A stretch of DNA of 64,000 nucleotides from Lactococcus allomyrinae (GTDB lineage Bacteria > Bacillota > Bacilli > Lactobacillales > Streptococcaceae). The DNA is taken from contig NZ_CP032627.1 of NCBI RefSeq assembly GCF_003627095.1, forward strand, positions 2,108,001-2,172,000, read 5' to 3'. The notes under the pieces were generated by a model, which was given only the letters and a program-made list of their open reading frames with translations, searched no databases and had not been told where the DNA came from. This document shows positions 8,829 to 64,000 of this stretch, in pieces. Made by a program: the position numbers and the translations under genes. The stretch's first letter is position 1. Every line of letters starts with the position of its first letter.

Positions 8829-9652
8829 TTATTTTGGTTCATTTTCATCAAAAATATTGCCTAATTTTACATCAATCGTACGGTTAGCAATGTCAATACG
8901 ATCCACCTTAAGAATAGATTTATAATCATCAACAAGACGCTCCCTTTAAATGGTCCTTCAAGAAAAACTGCAATTCCCGCTAGAAAACAATCAAATTCAT
9001 GAACCAAACTCTTCATTCCATTAATCGTTCCTGCACCTTTCATAAAATCATCAACAATCAACACATTTTGACCAATAGAAAGACTACGTTTAGAGAGAGT
9101 CATGTTTTCAACTCGTGAGCTTGAACCTGACATATAATTCACATTTAGCGTTGCACCCTCTGTAACTTTAGGGTCTCGCCTAACAATAACGAATGGAACA
9201 TCTAAGATTTCAGCAACAGACTGAGCAATTGGAATTCCTTTTGTTGCAATCGTCATAATGACATCAACCTGCTTATCATGATATTCATGAGCTATAATTT
9301 GACCGATTTTGCGTAAATTTGATGGTAAACCTAAAATATCCGAAAGATAGATATAACCTCCAGGTAAAATGCGGTTTTCCTCACGCAAAAGCTCAGCAAT
9401 TTCTTCTGTCATCTCTCGTGAACGTTCGTCAGATATATATGGAGTAAAGCGTACACCACCTAAACTTCCAGGAAAAGTTTCCACAATTCCTACACCTTGA
9501 TTTTCAAAAACACGTTTAATAAACACTAAATCTTCTGAAATAGACGACTTTGCAACTTCATAATGCTTGCTTAATTCGTTTAAATTAAGCATTTTATTAG
9601 GGTGATTAATTAAAAAATTTGTAAAATCGACTAAACGTTCGTTTCTTTTCAT
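8829..9652 (-). pseudogene. purR: purR, purine operon regulator with a one-base frameshift
   Basis: PurR of the Bacillus/Lactococcus type: an N-terminal winged helix (about residues 1-75) and a PRPP-binding phosphoribosyltransferase-like domain containing VLIVDDFMKGAGT; the lactococcal protein activates purine genes through PurBoxes. The start at 9652 (MKRNERLVDF) fits a transcript from the -10 box at 9684-9689. The frame breaks where AAAGGGAGCG (plus-strand C run 8942-8944) lacks one G; restoring it gives the expected GERLVDDYKS...IFDEN tail ending at 8829. As read, translation runs to 8867 with an unrelated tail. It is either a real C-terminal mutation or a homopolymer sequencing error. Confidence 0.85.
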
Positions 9653-56774: not shown

Positions 56775-57075
56775 GTATATTTAGTTATGTACTTCACTTG
56801 TATAAGAGGTAACTGGAGGAGTGTGGTATGGATTTGATAAAAAAACAACCCACTCAATAAAATTGGTGGGTATGCTCAGGTTATTATACCATTGTAAAAA
56901 CATACTTTAATTTATAAAAAGCTGTTTTTATTTGGCTATCTCATTCGTATGATAGCGAAATTATGGACAAGATTATCTTACCATATTTATCCAAAAAGGG
57001 ATTATAACAATTAGTAATAACTTTTGTTAACGTTGATAAGTAAAAACGAAAGTCATTGGTTTTGTATAAAAATTC
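56775..57075. other. Intergenic region between the 6S candidate and tRNA-Lys
   Basis: No standard gene. It contains a 10-codon ORF (56828-56860) with a perfect GGAGGA site and, on the minus strand, a short terminator-like hairpin (56839-56871) just downstream of an extended -10 box (56883-56891). The remainder is A/T-rich with nothing evident. Confidence 0.5.
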
Positions 57076-57104
57076 TTGCATTTTCTGGTGAAAAGGCGTA
57101 CAAT
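57076..57104 (+). promoter_or_regulatory. tRNA-Lys promoter
   Basis: TTGCAT (57076-57081), 17 nt, TACAAT (57099-57104). Confidence 0.75.
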
Positions 57105-57140
57105 GGTAAAGTAAGTTTTGAGCTTGCGTATTAAGAAATA

Positions 57141-57213
57141 GCCTCCTTAGCTCAGTTGGTAGAGCAGTAGACTCTTAATCTATGGGTCGTAGGTTCGAGT
57201 CCTACAGGGGGCA
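57141..57213 (+). tRNA. tRNA-Lys (CTT)
   Basis: Anticodon stem GTAGA/TCTAT, loop CTCTTAA, anticodon CTT. It is a single-gene unit with its own promoter and terminator. Confidence 0.95.
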
Positions 57214-57223
57214 TAAAAAAATA

Positions 57224-57256
57224 AAAAATAAGCGTTGTTAAGGCGCTTATTTTTGT
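57224..57256 (+). terminator. tRNA-Lys terminator
   Basis: AAAAATAAGCG and CGCTTATTTTT pair around TTGTTAAGG. Confidence 0.85.
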
Positions 57257-57279
57257 GTTTGTAAGTATTCTTTTGAATA

Positions 57280-57308
57280 TTGCACTTATAAATTTTCTGT
57301 GATATAAT
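57280..57308 (+). promoter_or_regulatory. pnuC promoter
   Basis: TTGCAC (57280-57285), 17 nt, TATAAT (57303-57308). The leader of about 55 nt shows no clear riboswitch. Confidence 0.75.
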
Positions 57309-57368
57309 TTTTCCAAAAGTTTAATAAATTTTAATTAAGAGTTCTTTTAATGAGAATATGGAGAGAAT

Positions 57369-58115
57369 ATGAACGTTTTTACTAGGGGATTATCACAAAC
57401 TTTTTCACCTAAAAATGTGATTCGTGAACTTATCACCTTACGTTTCTTTGACTATATAATGCTTTTAGTGATGCTTGTTGCGCAAGTGGTAGCCTATATT
57501 GCAACTGATGCATTTGATTTGATTAGCAATCTGTCATTGGTCGTTGGGGTATTTACAATTTTGAACCTCATTTTGATGAATAGAGGGCGATTGACTAACT
57601 ATCTTTGGGGGACAATCGGAACGATTTTTTGGTGGGTTATAGCATTACAGAGCCATTTGATTGGTGATATTTTTAGTCAGACTTTTTATTTGGTCATGCA
57701 ATTTGTAGGGATCTACTTTTGGCAGAAAAATTTGGATGATTTTGAGGGAGGCTCTGGTGAAGTAGCTCCTCGGAAGATAACAGCTAAGATTGCAAGTCTT
57801 GCTATTTTGGCTTTTGTAGTAATTTATGGAATTGTTTTAGCCACTTCTCATGGACTTCATGGTCAGCAAATATTCCTAGATGCAACGCTTTTGCCTCTAG
57901 GAATATTGTCTATGGTATTAATGACTTATGGCTATCGTTCACAATGGTTGGGATGGATTTTGATTGATTCTATCAATGTTATCATTTGGTTTAATAATTG
58001 GAATTCTGGAATACATGGTGGTAGCTCTGCTTTAGGAATGTTCGTTTTACAGATTACGATGCTCTTAAATTGTATCTACGGAACGTATCTTTGGTTTAGT
58101 AAGAAACCAGAGTAA
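57369..58115 (+). CDS. pnuC: Nicotinamide riboside/NMN transporter PnuC family
   Basis: A 248-residue membrane protein with about seven hydrophobic segments. The W/Y-rich VMQFVGIYFWQKNL and the C-terminal SQWLGWILIDSINVIIWF segment match PnuC, which takes up nicotinamide riboside for NAD synthesis. TGGAGAG precedes the ATG. It stands alone; a GCTGTCAG...AACAGC hairpin at about 58154-58172 probably ends it. Confidence 0.85.
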   Translation: MNVFTRGLSQTFSPKNVIRELITLRFFDYIMLLVMLVAQVVAYIATDAFDLISNLSLVVGVFTILNLILMNRGRLTNYLWGTIGTIFWWVIALQSHLIGDIFSQTFYLVMQFVGIYFWQKNLDDFEGGSGEVAPRKITAKIASLAILAFVVIYGIVLATSHGLHGQQIFLDATLLPLGILSMVLMTYGYRSQWLGWILIDSINVIIWFNNWNSGIHGGSSALGMFVLQITMLLNCIYGTYLWFSKKPE

Positions 58116-58189
58116 TGCATAGTTATTCTGCGTATCATAGGACTGGTTAAAGCGCTGTCAGCGTACTAACAGCTTTCTTTCCAAATGAA

Positions 58190-58213
58190 AATTGTCTGAA
58201 AAAAGTGTATAAT
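58190..58213 (+). promoter_or_regulatory. araT promoter region with possible CodY box
   Basis: TATAAT at 58208-58213 is preceded by AATTGTCTGAAAAAA (58190-58204), matching the CodY box AATTTTCWGAAAATT at about 12 of 15 positions. CodY represses araT in L. lactis, so the match is plausible. No good -35 is seen. Confidence 0.5.
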
Positions 58214-58225
58214 ACTGAAAAAGAC

Positions 58226-58247
58226 TTCTGTCAGCGTGCTGACAGAA
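58226..58247 (+). repeat. Repeat-derived hairpin in the araT leader
   Basis: TTCTGTCAGC and GCTGACAGAA flank GT, an inverted pair of the iterated half-site about 19 nt before the araT start codon. It lacks a T-run and lies in the untranslated leader. Confidence 0.8.
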
Positions 58248-58265
58248 AAGAGTGAAGGAAGCGCT

Positions 58266-59441
58266 ATGGATTTAACAAATAGATTTAACCCTAATTTGGA
58301 TAAAATTGCAGTTTCGATGATTCGTCAGTTTGATCAACAAGTTTCTAGTATTTCAGGAATTGTCAAATTAACTTTGGGTGAGCCTGATTTTTATACGCCT
58401 GAACACGTGAAGCAGGTTGGTATTGAGGCGATTACGGCGAATCAGAGCCATTATACTGGGATGGCTGGTTTGCCTGATTTAAGACAGGCTGCGAGTGATT
58501 TTATGGCTCAAAAGTATGGTTTGACTTTTAGTCCAGACAATGAAATTTTGGTTACAGTTGGGGTTACAGAAGCAATTTCTGCAACTTTACTTTCAATTTT
58601 AGTGGCTGGTGATGAGGTGTTGATACCTGCGCCAGCTTATCCTGGTTATGAGCCTTTAATTACGCTTTCTGGTGGTACTTTGGTTGAGATTGACACTACG
58701 GCAAATGATTTTGTTTTGACGCCTGAGATGCTTGAATCTGCGCTTGTAGAACATGTTGGAAAGGTAAAAGCAGTAATTTTGAATTATCCTGCAAATCCGA
58801 CAGGGGTAACTTACACGCAGGAGCAAATCAAATCACTCGCTGAGGTCGTCAAACGGCATGAAGTTTTCGTCATTGCTGACGAGGTTTACAGCGAGCTAAA
58901 TTACACGGGTGAGCCTCATGTTTCAATCGCGCAATATGCGCCAGAGCAAACGATTGTGCTGAATGGTTTGTCAAAATCTCATGCAATGACGGGCTGGCGG
59001 ATTGGGCTGATTTTTGCTCCGTCAGTGCTGACAGCGCAAATCATTAAGACGCATCAGTATTTGGTCACGTCAGCAAGCACGCAGTCGCAGTTTGCGGCGA
59101 TTGAGGCGCTGAAAAATGGGGCAAATGATGCAGAGCCGATGAAAAAAGAATATTTGAAACGGCGTGACTTTATCATTGAGCAGATGAGTAAGCTTGATTT
59201 TAAAATCATCAAACCTGATGGCGCTTTCTACATTTTCGCCAAAATTCCTGACGATTTGAATCAAAATTCATTTGAATTTTGTGTGGATTTTGCGCAAAAT
59301 AAATCTGTTGCGATTATCCCTGGAATCAGTTTTGGTCAATATGGGGAAGGCTTTGTCAGACTTTCTTATGCGGCATCAATGGATGTGATTGAACTTGCGA
59401 TGACACGTTTGGCAGAGTATGTCGCTGATAAACGTGGATAA
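58266..59441 (+). CDS. araT: Aromatic amino acid aminotransferase
   Basis: A class I PLP-dependent aminotransferase of 391 residues, first step in breakdown of Phe, Tyr, Trp and Leu in lactococci. LTLGEPDFYTPEHVKQ at the N-terminus, the NYPANPTGVTY segment, ADEVYSEL and the PLP lysine in LSKSHAMTGWRIG are all present. The start at 58266 (MDLTNRFNPNLDKI) has AAGGAAG upstream and matches known AraT starts; an earlier in-frame codon at 58236 lies in the leader hairpin. Confidence 0.9.
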   Translation: MDLTNRFNPNLDKIAVSMIRQFDQQVSSISGIVKLTLGEPDFYTPEHVKQVGIEAITANQSHYTGMAGLPDLRQAASDFMAQKYGLTFSPDNEILVTVGVTEAISATLLSILVAGDEVLIPAPAYPGYEPLITLSGGTLVEIDTTANDFVLTPEMLESALVEHVGKVKAVILNYPANPTGVTYTQEQIKSLAEVVKRHEVFVIADEVYSELNYTGEPHVSIAQYAPEQTIVLNGLSKSHAMTGWRIGLIFAPSVLTAQIIKTHQYLVTSASTQSQFAAIEALKNGANDAEPMKKEYLKRRDFIIEQMSKLDFKIIKPDGAFYIFAKIPDDLNQNSFEFCVDFAQNKSVAIIPGISFGQYGEGFVRLSYAASMDVIELAMTRLAEYVADKRG

Positions 59442-59860
59442 AGGCTGTCACTACACGCTTTCACATTATACTAGTTCAACTGCCTTGAGACGATTGACAA
59501 AAGTGGTGCTTTCCTTATCCGCAATCTTGATACATTGCATCAAGCGCGCGAGATGGTTTACGTTTACTCTTGTTGCTTTAGCCTAAGCAAAAGGAGGATA
59601 GCGGGAAGTTGCGTAGACCGTTCGTAGAACGGCGTGGGAAGCACATAGTCGAGCGAACCATTTGCCTCGTTGCTTCAGCAAATTAGACCCGTGGTGCATT
59701 AGCAACGTAGTGGAGTAATTTCTAAAAGGACTTTTTAGAAATTAAACAGTATTAAAAATATGAGGCACAGTGTTCTGGAAGTCTGGCGTTGGACGATTAT
59801 ATTTACAGCAATTCGTCAGGACTTAGACACTTGGTCAGCATACTGACAGGATGGTAAAAA
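59442..59860. other. Hairpin-rich intergenic region
   Basis: No ORF is convincing in these 419 nt. Four strong hairpins lie in a row: CTTGAT/ATCAAG (59526-59544), CCGTTC/GAACGG (59618-59632), CGTTGCT/AGCAACG (59668-59707) and the 11-bp AATTTCTAAAA/TTTTAGAAATT (59717-59743). A repeat half-site pair (GTCAGCATACTGACAGG, near 59835) precedes the next gene. It may encode a structured RNA or be an old repeat element. Confidence 0.5.
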
Positions 59861-60319
59861 ATGGAATGGTATGAAAATCGGATTTTATCTGCGAAAAATG
59901 GTACAAATCCAATGGTGATGGTAGAAATGAAAGCAGGATTTGCTGTGTTTGGCGATGTACAATTTTTGCCAGGTTATTGTGTATTGTTGCCCAAACATGA
60001 GATTTTTCAACTGAATGAACTTCCTTTGGCTGAGCGCACACAGTTTCTCTCGGATATGGCTTTGCTTGGCGATGCAATTATTGCAGCTTGTGAGCCGTTG
60101 CGCGTGAATTACGATGTTTTGGGAAATGCTGACCAATTTCTTCATGCGCATATTTTTCCGCGCTATGACTGGGAAGAGTCGAGTCGTCGAGTAAAACCAG
60201 TGTGGCTCTACGATGAAGCAAATTGGTATAGTGAAGATATAGCTTATCGGCCAGAGATTCATGATGAGCTTCGTAATCGTATAAAAGAAGAGTTAGTAAA
60301 ACTAATGACAGAAAAATAA
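59861..60319 (+). CDS. HIT-family nucleotide-binding protein
   Basis: A 152-residue HIT protein of the diadenosine tetraphosphate hydrolase type. The core motif reads FLHAHIFPRYDWE, keeping the last two histidines of the usual HxHxH triad while the first is replaced. PGYCVLLPKHE is the preceding strand. Likely a nucleotide hydrolase; substrate unknown. GGATGGTAAAAA precedes the ATG. It ends at the repeat-derived terminator. Confidence 0.8.
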   Translation: MEWYENRILSAKNGTNPMVMVEMKAGFAVFGDVQFLPGYCVLLPKHEIFQLNELPLAERTQFLSDMALLGDAIIAACEPLRVNYDVLGNADQFLHAHIFPRYDWEESSRRVKPVWLYDEANWYSEDIAYRPEIHDELRNRIKEELVKLMTEK

Positions 60320-60346
60320 ATACTGACAGAATTCTGTCAGTATTTT
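60318..60346. terminator. Terminator of the HIT gene, perfect palindrome
   Basis: AAATACTGACAGAA and TTCTGTCAGTATTT form a perfect palindrome with a T-run. Same core as the element at 8786-8805. Confidence 0.88.
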
Positions 60347-60575
60347 TTGATTTTTGTTCAATATAAAAGAATAGGGAAGCACCAACTTATTTTTCATTAT
60401 TTCTTGCCAATCGTACTCACGTCTTGGTATAACTGAATTCGCAACACCAGAAGCTATGAGAAAAGACAAAATGGAACCTGCTCTACGGGCAGAACCACAT
60501 TTTTCTATCTCCGTGCTTCCTGGCACTACGCTGTCCATTAGCTACAAAGAGCCAACTGGCATTTCTCTACACTTC
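60347..60575. other. Intergenic region between the HIT gene and recO
   Basis: No supported gene. A 78-codon minus-strand ORF (60302-60538) has no ribosome-binding site and runs through the HIT terminator; it could be a gene remnant. Its base composition is richer in G+C than the surroundings. Confidence 0.45.
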
Positions 60576-60605
60576 TTGACGGTGTTGCCCACATCTTGCT
60601 ATAAT
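60576..60605 (+). promoter_or_regulatory. recO-rgg promoter
   Basis: TTGACG (60576-60581), 18 nt, TATAAT (60600-60605) with TGC directly before the -10 (extended -10). Confidence 0.7.
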
Positions 60606-60634
60606 TAAATAAAAAGTAGGTGAAAGGAGAGATG

Positions 60635-61390
60635 ATGCGGGATGTTGAAACACGTGGTTTGATTCTTTATAGTCAAAATTACAAAGAAAAAGATAAGCTT
60701 GTAAAAATTTTTACTGAATCGTTTGGTAAGCGAATGTTTTTTGTAAAAAACTTTGGTAAATCAAAATATGCTAGTGGATTGCAAAACTTTACTTCATCAG
60801 TACTGACAGCGACAATCAATGATGAAGGTTTTAGTTTTATTGATGACGTCAGCGAAACGGTGACTTACAAACATATCATTGAAGACATTTTTGTCAATGC
60901 TCATGCTTCTTATATCATTAGTCTTGCAGATAGTGCGATTGCTGACAACCACTATGATCCGGCTTTGTTTTCTTTTTTGATTCGTGCTTTGGAATTGCTT
61001 GATGAAGGTTTTGATATGGAAATTATTACCAATATTTTTGAGCTTCAAGTGCTTAATCGTTTTGGTGTTTCGCTCAATTTTGCGGAGTGTGCTTTTTGTC
61101 ACACGACAACTGGACCTTTTGATTTTTCCTATAAATTTAGTGGTTGCTTGTGTCCGAAACATTTTGATGAAGACTTGAGACGGAGTCATCTTGACCCAAA
61201 TGTTATCTATCTCTGCAATCTTTTTCAGGAAATTTCTCTTGATGAGCTCAAAAAGATTTCTGTCAAACCAGAAATGAAACAAAAAATCCGTCAGTTCATT
61301 GACGGACTTTATGATGAGTATGTTGGCATTCACCTCAAAGCAAAGAAATTTTTAGATGGTATGGGAAATTGGGCGGATATTATGAAATGA
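60635..61390 (+). CDS. recO: DNA repair protein RecO
   Basis: RecO loads RecA on SSB-covered DNA together with RecR. 251 residues: an N-terminal OB fold (TRGLILYSQNYKEKDKLVKIFTE), a helical bundle and a C-terminal zinc-site region with CAFCHTTT and CLCPKHF. AAGGAGAG precedes two adjacent ATG codons; 60635 (MRDVETRG) matches homologues. The stop overlaps the rgg start by 4 nt. One repeat copy (60796-60811) encodes SSVLTA. Confidence 0.93.
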   Translation: MRDVETRGLILYSQNYKEKDKLVKIFTESFGKRMFFVKNFGKSKYASGLQNFTSSVLTATINDEGFSFIDDVSETVTYKHIIEDIFVNAHASYIISLADSAIADNHYDPALFSFLIRALELLDEGFDMEIITNIFELQVLNRFGVSLNFAECAFCHTTTGPFDFSYKFSGCLCPKHFDEDLRRSHLDPNVIYLCNLFQEISLDELKKISVKPEMKQKIRQFIDGLYDEYVGIHLKAKKFLDGMGNWADIMK

Positions 61391-62283
61391 GTGAAAAAAT
61401 GAATCAATCAAACTGGGGCTACGTTTTCCGAGAATTAAGAGAAGCGAAAAATTTTTCATTGTCAAAAGCAGCAGGGGATTATCAAGGGTCAACAAATTAC
61501 ATCACTTCAAAAGTACAAGTTTCAAGGTTTGAGCGTGGGATTTCCGATATTACATTGACAAAAATTTCTGGATTACTCGAAAATATAGGGGTCTCTTTTG
61601 AGGAGTATCTCTATCACATCAGGAGTTACGAACAGCCTAGAGAAATTTCGCTTGTCGAGCATCTTGGACGATTCCAAGAGCTAAATCAGTTGGATAAGAT
61701 TGAAGAACAGCATTTGATTTTGGCAAATGATTATCAAAAAACGAAACAAAGAAAGTTTTACTGGCTTGCTTTGGAGTTTAAGGCCTATCTGGCATTGAAA
61801 AATTTCAAAGATTATGAAATCAAAGCTGAAGAAATCAACGCAGTCAGCGACTATTTGTTTTCGGTATTGGAGTGGGGAGAGAGTGAGATTTTTCTTTTTG
61901 GAGAATTCATCCCATTCTTGTCAGAAAAACAGGTGTTTGATTATGCTAAAGAAGTAGTCAATCGCACAGAATTTTACCGCCAGTTTCCTCAACACAAGCA
62001 GCAAGTTGTACTAATGATAAGGGATTGTGCGCTCTATTTTATTGATAAGACAATGAAAGAAGAAGCGAATGAGTTGCTGAAAGACTACAAAAATCTGATT
62101 GCGAGTCCTATTGTAGATGTTTACAATCGAAAGGAGTACAAGTTTGTAGAAGGAAAATATCTGCTTATGGTAGGAAAAAAACAAGAAGCACAGCAAATTT
62201 TTGAATTTTTAGCGCAAATGTATGAATTGCTGGACTATCCAGAAACAGCAGAAATGATCAGAAAAATCGTTACAAATAAGTAA
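61387..62283 (+). CDS. Rgg/MutR-family transcription regulator
   Basis: A 298-residue regulator: N-terminal HTH_XRE (FRELREAKNFSLSKAAGD, VSRFERGISD) and a C-terminal helical repeat domain that in this family binds a peptide pheromone. Rgg proteins next to radical SAM genes control RiPP production in streptococci. The ATG at 61387 overlaps the recO stop as ATGA, so it is co-expressed with recO; a second in-frame ATG is at 61399. No short hydrophobic peptide gene of the SHP type is visible beside it. A terminator follows at 62263-62294. Confidence 0.88.
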   Translation: MSEKMNQSNWGYVFRELREAKNFSLSKAAGDYQGSTNYITSKVQVSRFERGISDITLTKISGLLENIGVSFEEYLYHIRSYEQPREISLVEHLGRFQELNQLDKIEEQHLILANDYQKTKQRKFYWLALEFKAYLALKNFKDYEIKAEEINAVSDYLFSVLEWGESEIFLFGEFIPFLSEKQVFDYAKEVVNRTEFYRQFPQHKQQVVLMIRDCALYFIDKTMKEEANELLKDYKNLIASPIVDVYNRKEYKFVEGKYLLMVGKKQEAQQIFEFLAQMYELLDYPETAEMIRKIVTNK

Positions 62284-62294
62284 TGATTTTTTAA
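62263..62294 (+). terminator. rgg terminator overlapping its stop codon
   Basis: AAAATCGTTAC and GTAATGATTTT pair (10 of 11) around AAATAA, followed by T-rich sequence. It separates recO-rgg from the peptide transcript. The same inverted repeat, just upstream of the peptide promoter, could also be an Rgg operator. Confidence 0.7.
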
Positions 62295-62306
62295 TGTTAA
62301 TTTTTA

Positions 62307-62312
62307 TATGAT
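62307..62312 (+). promoter_or_regulatory. Promoter of the RiPP precursor
   Basis: TATGAT as a -10, with no consensus -35 17 nt upstream (TGATTT), as expected for an activator-dependent promoter. The leader contains TTGTG (62322-62326) and CACAA (62348-62352) as a spaced inverted pair. Confidence 0.5.
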
Positions 62313-62380
62313 ACACTGTGCTTGTGGCGAAGAACGAAGCAACTTGTCACAAATCATAAAAAAATTAGGAGGTGACCAAG

Positions 62381-62452
62381 ATGAAAGTCACAATCAAAAA
62401 GAATAAAAAGGCACAAGAAACTCGCCAACATGTGATCAATGTTTGCAGTTGA
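62381..62452 (+). CDS. Putative RiPP precursor peptide, 23 residues
   Basis: A short ORF with a very strong ribosome-binding site (AGGAGGTGA, 7 nt before the ATG). The peptide begins MKVTIKKNKK and ends QHVINVCS, with one Cys at 22 and one Asn at 20. It is basic at the N-terminus and lacks a signal peptide. The position right before a radical SAM/SPASM gene and after an Rgg regulator is that of the peptides modified in streptococcal Rgg-controlled RaS-RiPP loci. The leader/core border is unknown; the Cys-containing C-terminal segment is the likely core. I cannot assign it to a described subfamily. Confidence 0.75.
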   Translation: MKVTIKKNKKAQETRQHVINVCS

Positions 62453-62460
62453 GAGACTTT

Positions 62461-62493
62461 GAAGCTGCCATAATGAGCAGCTTCTTCTTTTTT
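62461..62493 (+). terminator. Attenuating terminator between precursor and maturase
   Basis: GAAGCTGC and GCAGCTTC pair perfectly around an 8-nt loop, followed by TTCTTTTTTTA. Only 8 nt after the peptide stop, it should make precursor mRNA more abundant than maturase mRNA. Confidence 0.85.
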
Positions 62494-62513
62494 ATTTGGG
62501 AAAGGAATCTCCT

Positions 62514-63776
62514 ATGGCATTATTTACTAATTATGTAGAACAAGTAGAAAGCTCAGACAGCACGATTTTGTACAATTTTTATAACGGTATCTCCATAAAA
62601 TATCCTCACATATTATTTAAAAATATAGAAGAATTTTCCAGTAATAGTGATATTTATGATCTTTTAAATTCTGAGCAATTTTTGTCAAATAATTTTCACT
62701 TTAAAATCATCGATAGGACACTCCAACTCATTCTTCTTATTCACGAAGATTGTAATTTTCGGTGCACCTATTGCTACGAGAAATTTGAAAAAGGTGCGAT
62801 GAGTAAAGAAATTGCAGAGAGTGTCCTAAGGTTTATAAAAAAAGAAATAACGGAAAATAGGGAAAAATACGATAAGATACAACTTTCATGGTTTGGTGGA
62901 GAACCATTGCTAAATCTAAAAATCATTGAGTTTTTAAGTGATGAAGTTTTGAAACTAGCAAGACAAAATGACTTGGAATATTATTCAGATATTACTACAA
63001 ATGGTTACTTGCTCAGTCCAAGAATTTTTCAAAAACTTTTGAATTTAAAAGTGAATAATTTTCAGATCACGATTGACGGGACGCAAGTCTATCACGACAA
63101 ACAACGACTTTTAAAAAATGGACATGGAACATATGCTAGAATCATCCAAAATTTGTTGAGCATCAAGAAAAATATAACTGATGATACGGTTATTATCCTT
63201 AGGACAAACGTAGGAAAAGAGAATTATGAAACGATGGATGAAAATATATCAAATCTCATTTCCCTATTTGGAGATACAGAAAATATTTTACTTTTTTTCC
63301 ACAATATTGGTAACTGGGGAGAAAAGGAGATAGAAGTCGTAAAAAAAGACATCCGTCTTGAATTAACAAAACGGGTTATTGAACGTGGCGGTCATGTTGT
63401 ACCGTTTATTTGGACGATGGGACCAGATAATATATGTTATGCAGCAAAAGAAAATCACTATGTCATAGGATCCATGGGTTTGGTGTATAAGTGCACAGTC
63501 GCTCTTTATGATCAAAGAAATATTTTGGGGAGATTGGACAAACAAGGAAATTTGCTAATAGACAGAAAAAAAGAAAAAATGTGGACAGAAGTAGAGCTAG
63601 ATGAAGAATGTTATTCCTGTACACTCTTACCAAGTTGCCTGAACAATAGATGTCCTCTGAATAGAATGACTTCCAAGCAAACTCACTATTGTCTTCCCAC
63701 AAAAGGGCAAATCGAAGAAATGATACTAGTATTGGACAAGCAAAATCTGATTACGTATGAAATTGGAGCGAATTGA
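62514..63776 (+). CDS. Radical SAM/SPASM peptide maturase
   Basis: A 420-residue radical SAM enzyme. The SAM-cluster motif is Cys80-x3-Cys84-x2-Cys87, with WFGGEP (126-131) and TTNGYLL in the barrel. The C-terminal SPASM domain has Cys308, 327, 366, 369, 375, 380 and 393 (CYSCTLLPSCLNNRCP), enough for two auxiliary Fe-S clusters, as in sactipeptide, streptide and other peptide-modifying enzymes. About 75 N-terminal residues probably bind the precursor. The ATG at 62514 has AAAGGA 7 nt upstream; an in-frame TTG at 62496 lies before that site. The next gene begins directly after the stop. Confidence 0.9.
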   Translation: MALFTNYVEQVESSDSTILYNFYNGISIKYPHILFKNIEEFSSNSDIYDLLNSEQFLSNNFHFKIIDRTLQLILLIHEDCNFRCTYCYEKFEKGAMSKEIAESVLRFIKKEITENREKYDKIQLSWFGGEPLLNLKIIEFLSDEVLKLARQNDLEYYSDITTNGYLLSPRIFQKLLNLKVNNFQITIDGTQVYHDKQRLLKNGHGTYARIIQNLLSIKKNITDDTVIILRTNVGKENYETMDENISNLISLFGDTENILLFFHNIGNWGEKEIEVVKKDIRLELTKRVIERGGHVVPFIWTMGPDNICYAAKENHYVIGSMGLVYKCTVALYDQRNILGRLDKQGNLLIDRKKEKMWTEVELDEECYSCTLLPSCLNNRCPLNRMTSKQTHYCLPTKGQIEEMILVLDKQNLITYEIGAN

Positions 63777-64000
63777 ATGAACCTTATCAAAAGAAACTCC
63801 ACTTTTCGGTCTCTTTTTCTTTGTAATGTCTTTAACACGATGGGAAGCAATCTCTTCTCATTAGCCTTTATTATCTATGCTTCGACTTATCCCAATAGTA
63901 AGATGTATATCTCTCTAGCAGCACTACTCATGGTTTTTCCGACATTTTTAAATGCTTATATGGGCTATCTGGCGGATCACACCATAAACAAGAAACGAGC
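63777..64000 (+). CDS. MFS transporter, 5' part
   Basis: The ORF opens with ATG immediately after the maturase stop and runs off the window after 74 codons. Two hydrophobic segments are seen (about 11-33 and 43-65) followed by YLADHTINKKR, resembling the loop 2-3 motif of the major facilitator superfamily. In RaS-RiPP loci such a protein usually exports the mature peptide. It is probably translated by coupling, with GGAGCG upstream. Confidence 0.75.
   Translation, partial: MNLIKRNSTFRSLFLCNVFNTMGSNLFSLAFIIYASTYPNSKMYISLAALLMVFPTFLNAYMGYLADHTINKKR

What the first reader, a model, noticed from the sequence alone, without database searches (positions are those of the whole stretch)
61387..64000. 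Candidate Rgg-controlled radical SAM peptide (RaS-RiPP) locus in Lactococcus
Seen: an Rgg-type regulator, a 23-codon ORF with a near-perfect SD, a perfect terminator, a radical SAM enzyme with seven SPASM cysteines and the start of an MFS protein, all in one direction. Known: streptococci carry many Rgg/radical SAM/small peptide loci whose products are unusually cyclised signalling or antimicrobial peptides. Inference: this is a lactococcal member with a peptide (QHVINVCS end) that I cannot place in a described subfamily.
Basis: partly seen in the sequence, partly recalled or inferred. Interest (0 to 1): 0.88.

Follow-up and report, generated by a model that had tools for sequence, protein, structure and literature searches.

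The report
Rgg-linked lactococcal cyclic-peptide gene cassette
A Lactococcus genome carries a small gene cassette that probably makes, crosslinks and exports a very short peptide under the control of a neighbouring Rgg-type switch; it is an uncharacterised sister of a known streptococcal peptide family, and the crosslink is predicted, not shown.

Summary
In one direction lie rgg, a 23-codon ORF with a 9-base Shine-Dalgarno match, a terminator, a radical SAM/SPASM maturase with all seven auxiliary cysteines, and an MFS gene. The cassette recurs in Lactococcus sp. dk101 at another chromosomal site, with the peptide's two ends kept (MKVTIKKNKKAQETRQHVINVCS; MKVTIKKNPKSNSNHKHVINIC) through mostly synonymous changes, although that maturase ORF is frameshifted in the assembly. 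The maturase pair is a deep clade, 37% identical to the S. orisratti enzyme taken as NxxcB and outside its clade. Of 25 relatives examined, 18 lie beside a small peptide ending in N-x(1,2)-C; the opposite strand gave 2 of 25. Best reading: an Asn20-Cys22 thioether (loss of 2 Da), then export. Seven of seven related Lactococcus rgg genes end in a similar palindrome, 31-32 nt before a -10-like box, while the genes behind differ: a candidate Rgg operator. No convincing SHP gene was found near rgg. In three relatives rgg is followed by a transporter gene with no maturase or precursor between. This is a new variant of a known kind; chemistry, Rgg ligand and activity are untested.

The parts
61387..62283 (+). 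rgg: Rgg/GadR/MutR-type regulator, HTH plus Rgg C-terminal domain
   Evidence: Pfam PF21259 2e-26; TIGR01716 4e-27; PDB sequence hits to transcriptional regulators, best 4yv6 at 2.9e-16
62268..62285 (.). palindrome CGTTAC-AAATAA-GTAATG over the rgg stop; putative Rgg operator, also a possible rgg terminator as RNA
   Evidence: similar palindrome (5 or 6 of 6 pairs, arms covarying) in 7 of 7 Lactococcus rgg of this clade; RNA hairpin -12.2 kcal/mol, z -6.6
62312..62317 (+). putative -10 box TACACT, 32 nt after the palindrome's loop
   Evidence: a TANNNT box at 31-32 nt in 7 of 7 loci; in the window a second candidate, TATGAT, lies at 27 nt
62367..62375 (+). Shine-Dalgarno AGGAGGTGA of the precursor
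   Evidence: sequence
62381..62452 (+). precursor peptide MKVTIKKNKKAQETRQHVINVCS; predicted crosslink Asn20-Cys22
62461..62493 (+). intrinsic terminator/attenuator between precursor and maturase
   Evidence: a hairpin of different sequence at the same place in L004
62514..63776 (+). radical SAM/SPASM peptide maturase, 420 aa
   Evidence: Pfam PF04055 9.8e-19; best NCBIfam model TIGR04463, 172 bits against a 525-bit cut-off; tree
63777..64000 (+). 5' part of MFS transporter gene (complete in L002:5778-7010)

Best explanation
The cassette makes a very small ribosomal peptide crosslinked by a radical SAM/SPASM enzyme. Rgg binds the palindrome over its own stop codon and activates the promoter in front of the precursor gene (inferred). 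The precursor is made in excess of the maturase because a terminator lies between the two genes (inferred from position). The maturase recognises the lysine-rich leader, abstracts a beta-hydrogen from Asn20 and joins that carbon to the sulphur of Cys22, a one-residue-shorter version of the Asn20-Cys23 beta-thioether reported for NxxcA of S. orisratti (inferred from shared motif and homology). The leader is then removed and the MFS protein exports the product, acting as exporter and possibly self-protection (inferred). Shown: gene content and order, conservation of the peptide, the conserved palindrome and spacing, and the family relationship of the enzyme. Not shown: chemistry, cleavage, export, Rgg ligand, activity.
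For: The same cassette occurs in a second Lactococcus at a different site. Codon changes between the two peptides are mostly synonymous. N-x(1,2)-C endings are found beside 18 of 25 related maturases, against 2 of 25 on the opposite strand and 4 of 25 for the reversed motif. The maturase is 37% identical over 331 residues to the S. orisratti scaffold-24 enzyme, whose neighbouring peptide has N20 and C23, the crosslinked residues named for NxxcA in passages of PMC8326336. Asn is residue 20 in both lactococcal peptides too. All seven SPASM cysteines are present. The palindrome and its spacing to a -10-like box are kept in 7 of 7 loci with four different downstream gene contents. Homologous MFS genes stand directly behind related rgg genes in two other species, with no maturase or precursor between.
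Against: Only two loci have this exact peptide, and in one of them (L. sp. dk101 assembly) the maturase frame is broken before the last SPASM cysteines. The MFS proteins of the two loci are only 33% identical. The motif is N-x-C, not NxxC. In the tree, rooted only at the midpoint, the maturase pair is sister to, not inside, the clade that holds NxxC, and that clade also holds loci whose peptides lack N-x(1,2)-C (ending HYCDEDGNEF), so crosslink chemistry cannot be carried over with certainty. Seven of the 25 relatives had no motif peptide by the criteria, some of the 18 are near-duplicates of each other, and two further loci read (L080, L095) showed no convincing peptide and were not among the 25. 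The seven palindromes come from related genes and are not independent; a palindrome alone arises in 5-14% of shuffles, and it can also be read as a terminator of rgg. The more distant Rgg beside the second maturase of L. hircilactis lacks it.
Confidence: 0.6

Rival explanations
1. It is a RaS-RiPP cassette, but the bond is another one: an alpha-thioether (sactionine), a bond to His17, Ile19 or another residue, or an ether/C-C link.
For: H17, V18, I19, N20 and C22 are all identical in the two peptides; related SPASM enzymes make alpha-, beta- and gamma-thioethers (PMC8326336 passages; PMC13361665 section 13); the maturase is outside the NxxC clade.
Against: The pairing of Asn with a Cys one or two residues later recurs beside the maturase's relatives (18 of 25), and Asn is the acceptor in the one relative whose bond is described in the passages read.
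Confidence: 0.25
2. The crosslinked peptide is itself the ligand of Rgg: an autoinducing cyclic pheromone rather than a separate antimicrobial.
For: Within 600 bp before and 400 bp after the window's rgg the precursor is the only ORF of 8-40 codons with a Shine-Dalgarno match of 5 or more bases. rgg starts directly behind recO in the window and behind another gene (a MATE-type exporter by eye) in dk101, leaving no room for a divergent shp.
Against: One 31-codon TTG-start ORF with a 4-base match and a hydrophobic end overlaps the terminator (62443-62538), and dk101 has a 10-codon ORF with a 6-base match and a hydrophobic end inside rgg; I judge both chance but cannot exclude them. The precursor's last ten residues are not hydrophobic on average (-0.08). 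Related rgg genes persist with only a transporter. Subfamilies without an identified shp are already described (PMC13361665 section 15), and a ligand could be encoded elsewhere.
Confidence: 0.1
3. The short ORF is an attenuator leader peptide: its translation controls read-through of the terminator into the maturase gene.
For: The terminator stem starts 9 nt after the ORF's stop codon in the window and close behind it in L004.
Against: The peptide's two ends, not a codon run, are conserved, and the ending matches peptides beside related maturases, where the peptide often lies downstream of the maturase and could not attenuate it.
Confidence: 0.05
4. A decayed or silent cassette on its way out of the lineage.
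For: Maturase frameshift in dk101; no maturase or precursor between rgg and the MFS gene in L. hircilactis (recO site) and G012.
Against: All window genes are open, with catalytic and SPASM cysteines intact.
Confidence: 0.05

Closest known systems
NxxC RaS-RiPPs (NxxcA/NxxcB, S. orisratti and S. porci; Asn-Cys beta-thioether ranthipeptides)
   Same: Homologous SPASM maturase (37%), very short precursor with a lysine-rich leader, Asn at residue 20 (S. orisratti), Cys close behind it near the C-terminus, rgg next door
   Different: One residue instead of two between Asn and Cys; maturase outside the NxxC clade; precursor upstream of the maturase with a terminator between (downstream in S. orisratti scaffold 24 and S. 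porci); MFS instead of the ABC-type transporters (named by eye) found there
Rgg/SHP-controlled RaS-RiPP loci of streptococci (streptide, tryglysin, streptosactin and others)
   Same: rgg, precursor, radical SAM enzyme and transporter in one cluster
   Different: No convincing shp beside rgg; Lactococcus, whereas a review passage calls SHP/RGG operons conserved only in Streptococcus (PMC11002830)
L. fujiensis cassette at the same recO-lpdA site (L051/L060)
   Same: Same site, related rgg (45%), related maturase (37%), similar palindrome and -10 spacing
   Different: ABC-type transporter and three precursors downstream (endings INAVCGAGC, FNVLCG, INVVCGSGC)
Paenibacillus ehimensis locus (L070)
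   Same: Order peptide - maturase - MFS; peptide ends NDNCNGC
   Different: Longer precursor (42 aa); no rgg recognised next to it; a different maturase branch

Membership tests
Rgg-linked RaS-RiPP loci | rgg gene next to the biosynthetic genes | tested here: met
   also in dk101
Rgg-linked RaS-RiPP loci | short precursor ORF next to a SPASM radical SAM gene | tested here: met
Rgg-linked RaS-RiPP loci | adjacent shp pheromone gene (most, not all, subfamilies) | tested here: not met
   no ORF with a Shine-Dalgarno match of 5 or more bases besides the precursor; one weak TTG-start candidate over the terminator. Exceptions CGx, CGG and VSA are described in PMC13361665 section 15
Rgg-linked RaS-RiPP loci | transcription controlled by Rgg | tested here: inconclusive
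   conserved palindrome and spacing in 7 of 7 loci; no expression data
NxxC subfamily | Asn-x-x-Cys in the precursor | tested here: not met
   NVC / NIC, one intervening residue
NxxC subfamily | maturase groups with NxxcB | tested here: not met
   sister to the 19-row clade that holds it, 100/99 support, midpoint root
NxxC subfamily | Cys-to-Asn beta-carbon thioether | not testable with these tools
   needs MS/NMR
Ranthipeptides | thioether to a carbon other than the alpha-carbon | not testable with these tools
   needs MS/NMR
TIGR04463 radical SAM/SPASM RiPP maturases | score above the curated cut-off | tested here: not met
   172 bits against 525; the S. orisratti enzyme taken as NxxcB also falls short, 143 bits

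The most novel reading that the evidence does not exclude
An SHP-free Rgg circuit in Lactococcus in which the radical-SAM-crosslinked C-terminal end of the precursor (around HVINVC) is at once the product and the signal: the modified peptide is exported by the MFS protein, re-imported and bound by Rgg, which drives its own operon from the palindrome over the rgg stop codon.
Probability: 0.1. Interest if true: 0.75.

Novelty: new variant of a known kind. Interest (0 to 1): 0.45.

Why it matters
It adds a lactococcal branch to a peptide family studied mainly in streptococci, with a predicted Asn-Cys crosslink over one residue (a spacing also seen in the endings of some relatives, for example S. 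sanguinis and L. nasutitermitis, but not in the characterised NxxcA) and a compact layout convenient for in vitro work. The putative operator shared by seven Rgg cassettes with different cargo makes Rgg control of such loci directly testable in harmless lactococci.

Tried and rejected
Searched for DNA encoding HVIN[VIM]C in 295 Streptococcaceae genomes: 14 genomes had a match, 16 places in all. Only two places, the window and dk101 C31, lie in a precursor-like ORF; the second match in dk101 (C1) and the two in G015 lie in other frames and were not examined further. Rejected filing under NxxC: motif and tree say no. A plasmid or viral origin found no support: no DNA match in the plasmid collection, no maturase above about 35% identity among the 20 plasmid places listed of 134 records, no relative in the viral contigs. 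Rfam, 57000-64000: a tRNA at 57141 and one match far below its gathering score. NCBIfam gave no family for the six precursor peptides tried. No description of a lactococcal member was found in print with the searches (open-licence PMC only; listings and start of abstracts seen). A survey of lactic acid bacteria (PMC10134562, passages) groups RaS-RiPP, ranthipeptide and sactipeptide clusters as a class, so such loci may be tallied there without description. The primary NxxC paper was not read; it is known here through reviews. A literature search on Rgg binding motifs gave nothing that I followed up. Names given by eye from sequence, with no family search: lpdA and the pyruvate dehydrogenase genes, the ABC-type transporters, the MATE-type gene in dk101; MFS was checked in the window and in Paenibacillus, and by BLAST homology in three relatives.
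Full report
WHAT IS THERE. Behind recO lie, in one direction, rgg (61387-62283), a 23-codon ORF (62381-62452, MKVTIKKNKKAQETRQHVINVCS), a terminator (62461-62484 plus T run), a radical SAM/SPASM gene (62514-63776) and an MFS gene (from 63777; 410 aa in L002); a convergent gene that I recognise by eye as lpdA follows. Family searches confirm RecO, Rgg, radical SAM and MFS. The maturase has the CxxxCxxC cluster and seven auxiliary cysteines. Genomes of the same genus have contigs of the same length as named records of L. fujiensis, L. nasutitermitis, L. hircilactis and Lactococcus sp. dk101, so the host is a Lactococcus.

IS THE PEPTIDE REAL. In 5000 dinucleotide shuffles of the intergenic region, 34 gave a comparable Shine-Dalgarno plus ORF, so the ORF alone is suggestive. 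Of 18 genomes of the genus, 5, the window's own included, have a maturase match at E <= 1e-20. Only one other is close (58%, Lactococcus sp. dk101), and it has rgg, then MKVTIKKNPKSNSNHKHVINIC, a terminator of different sequence, the maturase and an MFS gene, on a contig other than that of its recO. Over the 16 codons that align without gaps (10 leader, 6 core) there are 7 synonymous and 2 nonsynonymous codon changes, and 7 of 10 base differences fall at codon position 3; the other two frames have no synonymous change. I read this as selection on a peptide, from few codons. Against full confidence: the dk101 maturase ORF is frameshifted in that assembly before its last cysteines, and the MFS proteins of the two loci are only 33% identical.

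RELATIVES. One scan of the species-genome collection with a nine-row alignment returned 51 loci. I used 25 of the 51 for the tree and for the peptide count; 26 were left out (near-duplicates, eight further Paenibacillus loci, fragments, distant matches, or frames not delimited). Two of the 26, L080 and L095, had been read and showed no convincing peptide. In the tree of 26 rows the window and dk101 form a pair (100/99) that is sister to 19 other rows (100/99), including the S. orisratti scaffold-24 enzyme, L. fujiensis, L. nasutitermitis, L. hircilactis and two loci whose peptides end in NEF. The root is only at the midpoint, and the tool warns of three long clostridial branches outside these groups. 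Identity to the S. orisratti scaffold-24 enzyme is 37% over 331 residues. That enzyme stands beside MIVKENKKYDPTKVYQTQRNDSCTNGICG, in which residues 20 and 23 are Asn and Cys, the crosslinked residues of NxxcA from S. orisratti in passages of PMC8326336. I therefore take it as NxxcB; no sequence from the original paper was compared. Of the 25 relatives, 18 (dk101 among them, and some near-duplicates such as S. porci and S. moroccensis) have, on the maturase strand and outside large genes, an SD-led 18-50 aa ORF with N-x(1,2)-C in its last 15 residues; the opposite strand gave 2 of 25 and the reversed motif 4 of 25. The seven without it are S. mitis, Heyndrickxia, Acetatifactor, the two NEF loci and two clostridial rows. 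The looser listing shows such a peptide for Acetatifactor too.

REGULATION. The genus search with Rgg gave 7 of 18 genomes at E <= 1e-30, one locus each, the window included. All seven end in CGTNAC-N6-GTNACG or a one-mismatch version (5 or 6 of 6 pairs), with arms that covary (GTAAC/GTTAC, GTCAC/GTGAC), lying over or beside the stop codon, and 31 or 32 nt further a TANNNT box. In mononucleotide shuffles a palindrome alone arises in 5-14% and palindrome plus box in 0.3-1.5% per locus; the loci are related, so these are not independent trials. Two of the seven, the window and dk101, also have a second box-like site at another distance. The genes behind it differ: peptide-maturase-MFS (window, dk101), maturase-ABC-peptide(s) (L. 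fujiensis, L. nasutitermitis), ABC only (G011), MFS only (L. hircilactis recO site, G012). A fixed spacing to a -10-like box fits an activator site. The same element also folds as an RNA hairpin with a T run in the window and in L. fujiensis, so it may end rgg transcription as well; in the window one arm pair is G-T, which pairs in RNA but not as DNA. I infer an Rgg operator, unproven. The Rgg beside the separate maturase of L. hircilactis (C49) is distant (28%) and lacks the palindrome. Around the window's rgg the only ORF of 8-40 codons with a Shine-Dalgarno match of 5 or more bases is the precursor itself; one TTG-start ORF with a 4-base match and a hydrophobic end overlaps the terminator, and dk101 has a 10-codon one inside rgg. 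I take these as chance, so no convincing shp was found.

GENOMIC SETTING. recO was found in 17 of 18 genus genomes; my script located it in 13 of those 17 loci. In 8 of the 13, the end of lpdA lies within about 150 bp of recO, and in one more at 357 bp: an empty site. In one (L126) another gene follows. In the window, G011 and L. hircilactis an rgg follows recO, as it does in L. fujiensis, read from a longer stretch. lpdA was seen behind the cassette in the window, G011 and L. fujiensis; for L. hircilactis I did not look. recO of G011 is 98% identical to the window's, yet its cassette is rgg-ABC, so cargo at this site changes between close relatives. In L. hircilactis a short tail resembling the maturase's C-terminus precedes the MFS start and its MFS is 70% identical to the window's, which suggests loss of maturase and peptide with the transporter kept; that genome has another, different maturase locus elsewhere. 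A published parallel is an S. thermophilus Rgg locus whose full form in S. suis makes ryptide: in 264 of 265 strains the operon encodes only the transporter (PMC12445099 passage).

COMPARISON AND VERDICT. The cassette works like a RaS-RiPP locus and is nearest to NxxC, but fails NxxC membership on motif spacing and on maturase clade. Reviews read in sections or passages (PMC13361665 sections 12, 13 and 15, and passages; PMC8326336 passages; PMC11002830 passages) describe sixteen streptococcal subfamilies and no lactococcal one that I saw. I rate it a new variant of a known kind, with moderate interest: the parts are familiar, the combination and the crosslink prediction are new and easily tested.

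Noticed in passing
L060 about 8877-9178 (+); L051:3012-3083 (-) is the middle one: L. fujiensis has three tandem precursor genes behind its ABC-type transporter with different endings (INAVCGAGC, FNVLCG, INVVCGSGC).
   Followed up: partly
window 61390-61399 to L002:7034; also L111, L119, L051: The recO-lpdA gap is empty in 8 of 13 Lactococcus loci read and holds different rgg cassettes in the window, G011 and L. fujiensis: a small cargo hotspot.
   Followed up: partly
L059:5947-7116 (same as L004): The dk101 maturase ORF ends early; the missing SPASM cysteines lie in another frame. Assembly error or pseudogene.
   Followed up: partly
L070, 185 to 56 bases before the maturase start: Paenibacillus ehimensis has peptide - maturase - MFS with an NDNCNGC ending, the window's gene order without a recognised rgg next to it.
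   Followed up: partly
L080: A contig filed as Roseivivax lentus holds a maturase match of the same length as the Paenibacillus ones; a contaminant or mislabelled record is possible, not checked.
   Followed up: no
window 57141-57213: A tRNA gene on the + strand (Rfam RF00005).
   Followed up: no
window 59450-59860: About 400 bases without a convincing gene between what look by eye like an aminotransferase and a HIT-type gene; no Rfam match.
   Followed up: no
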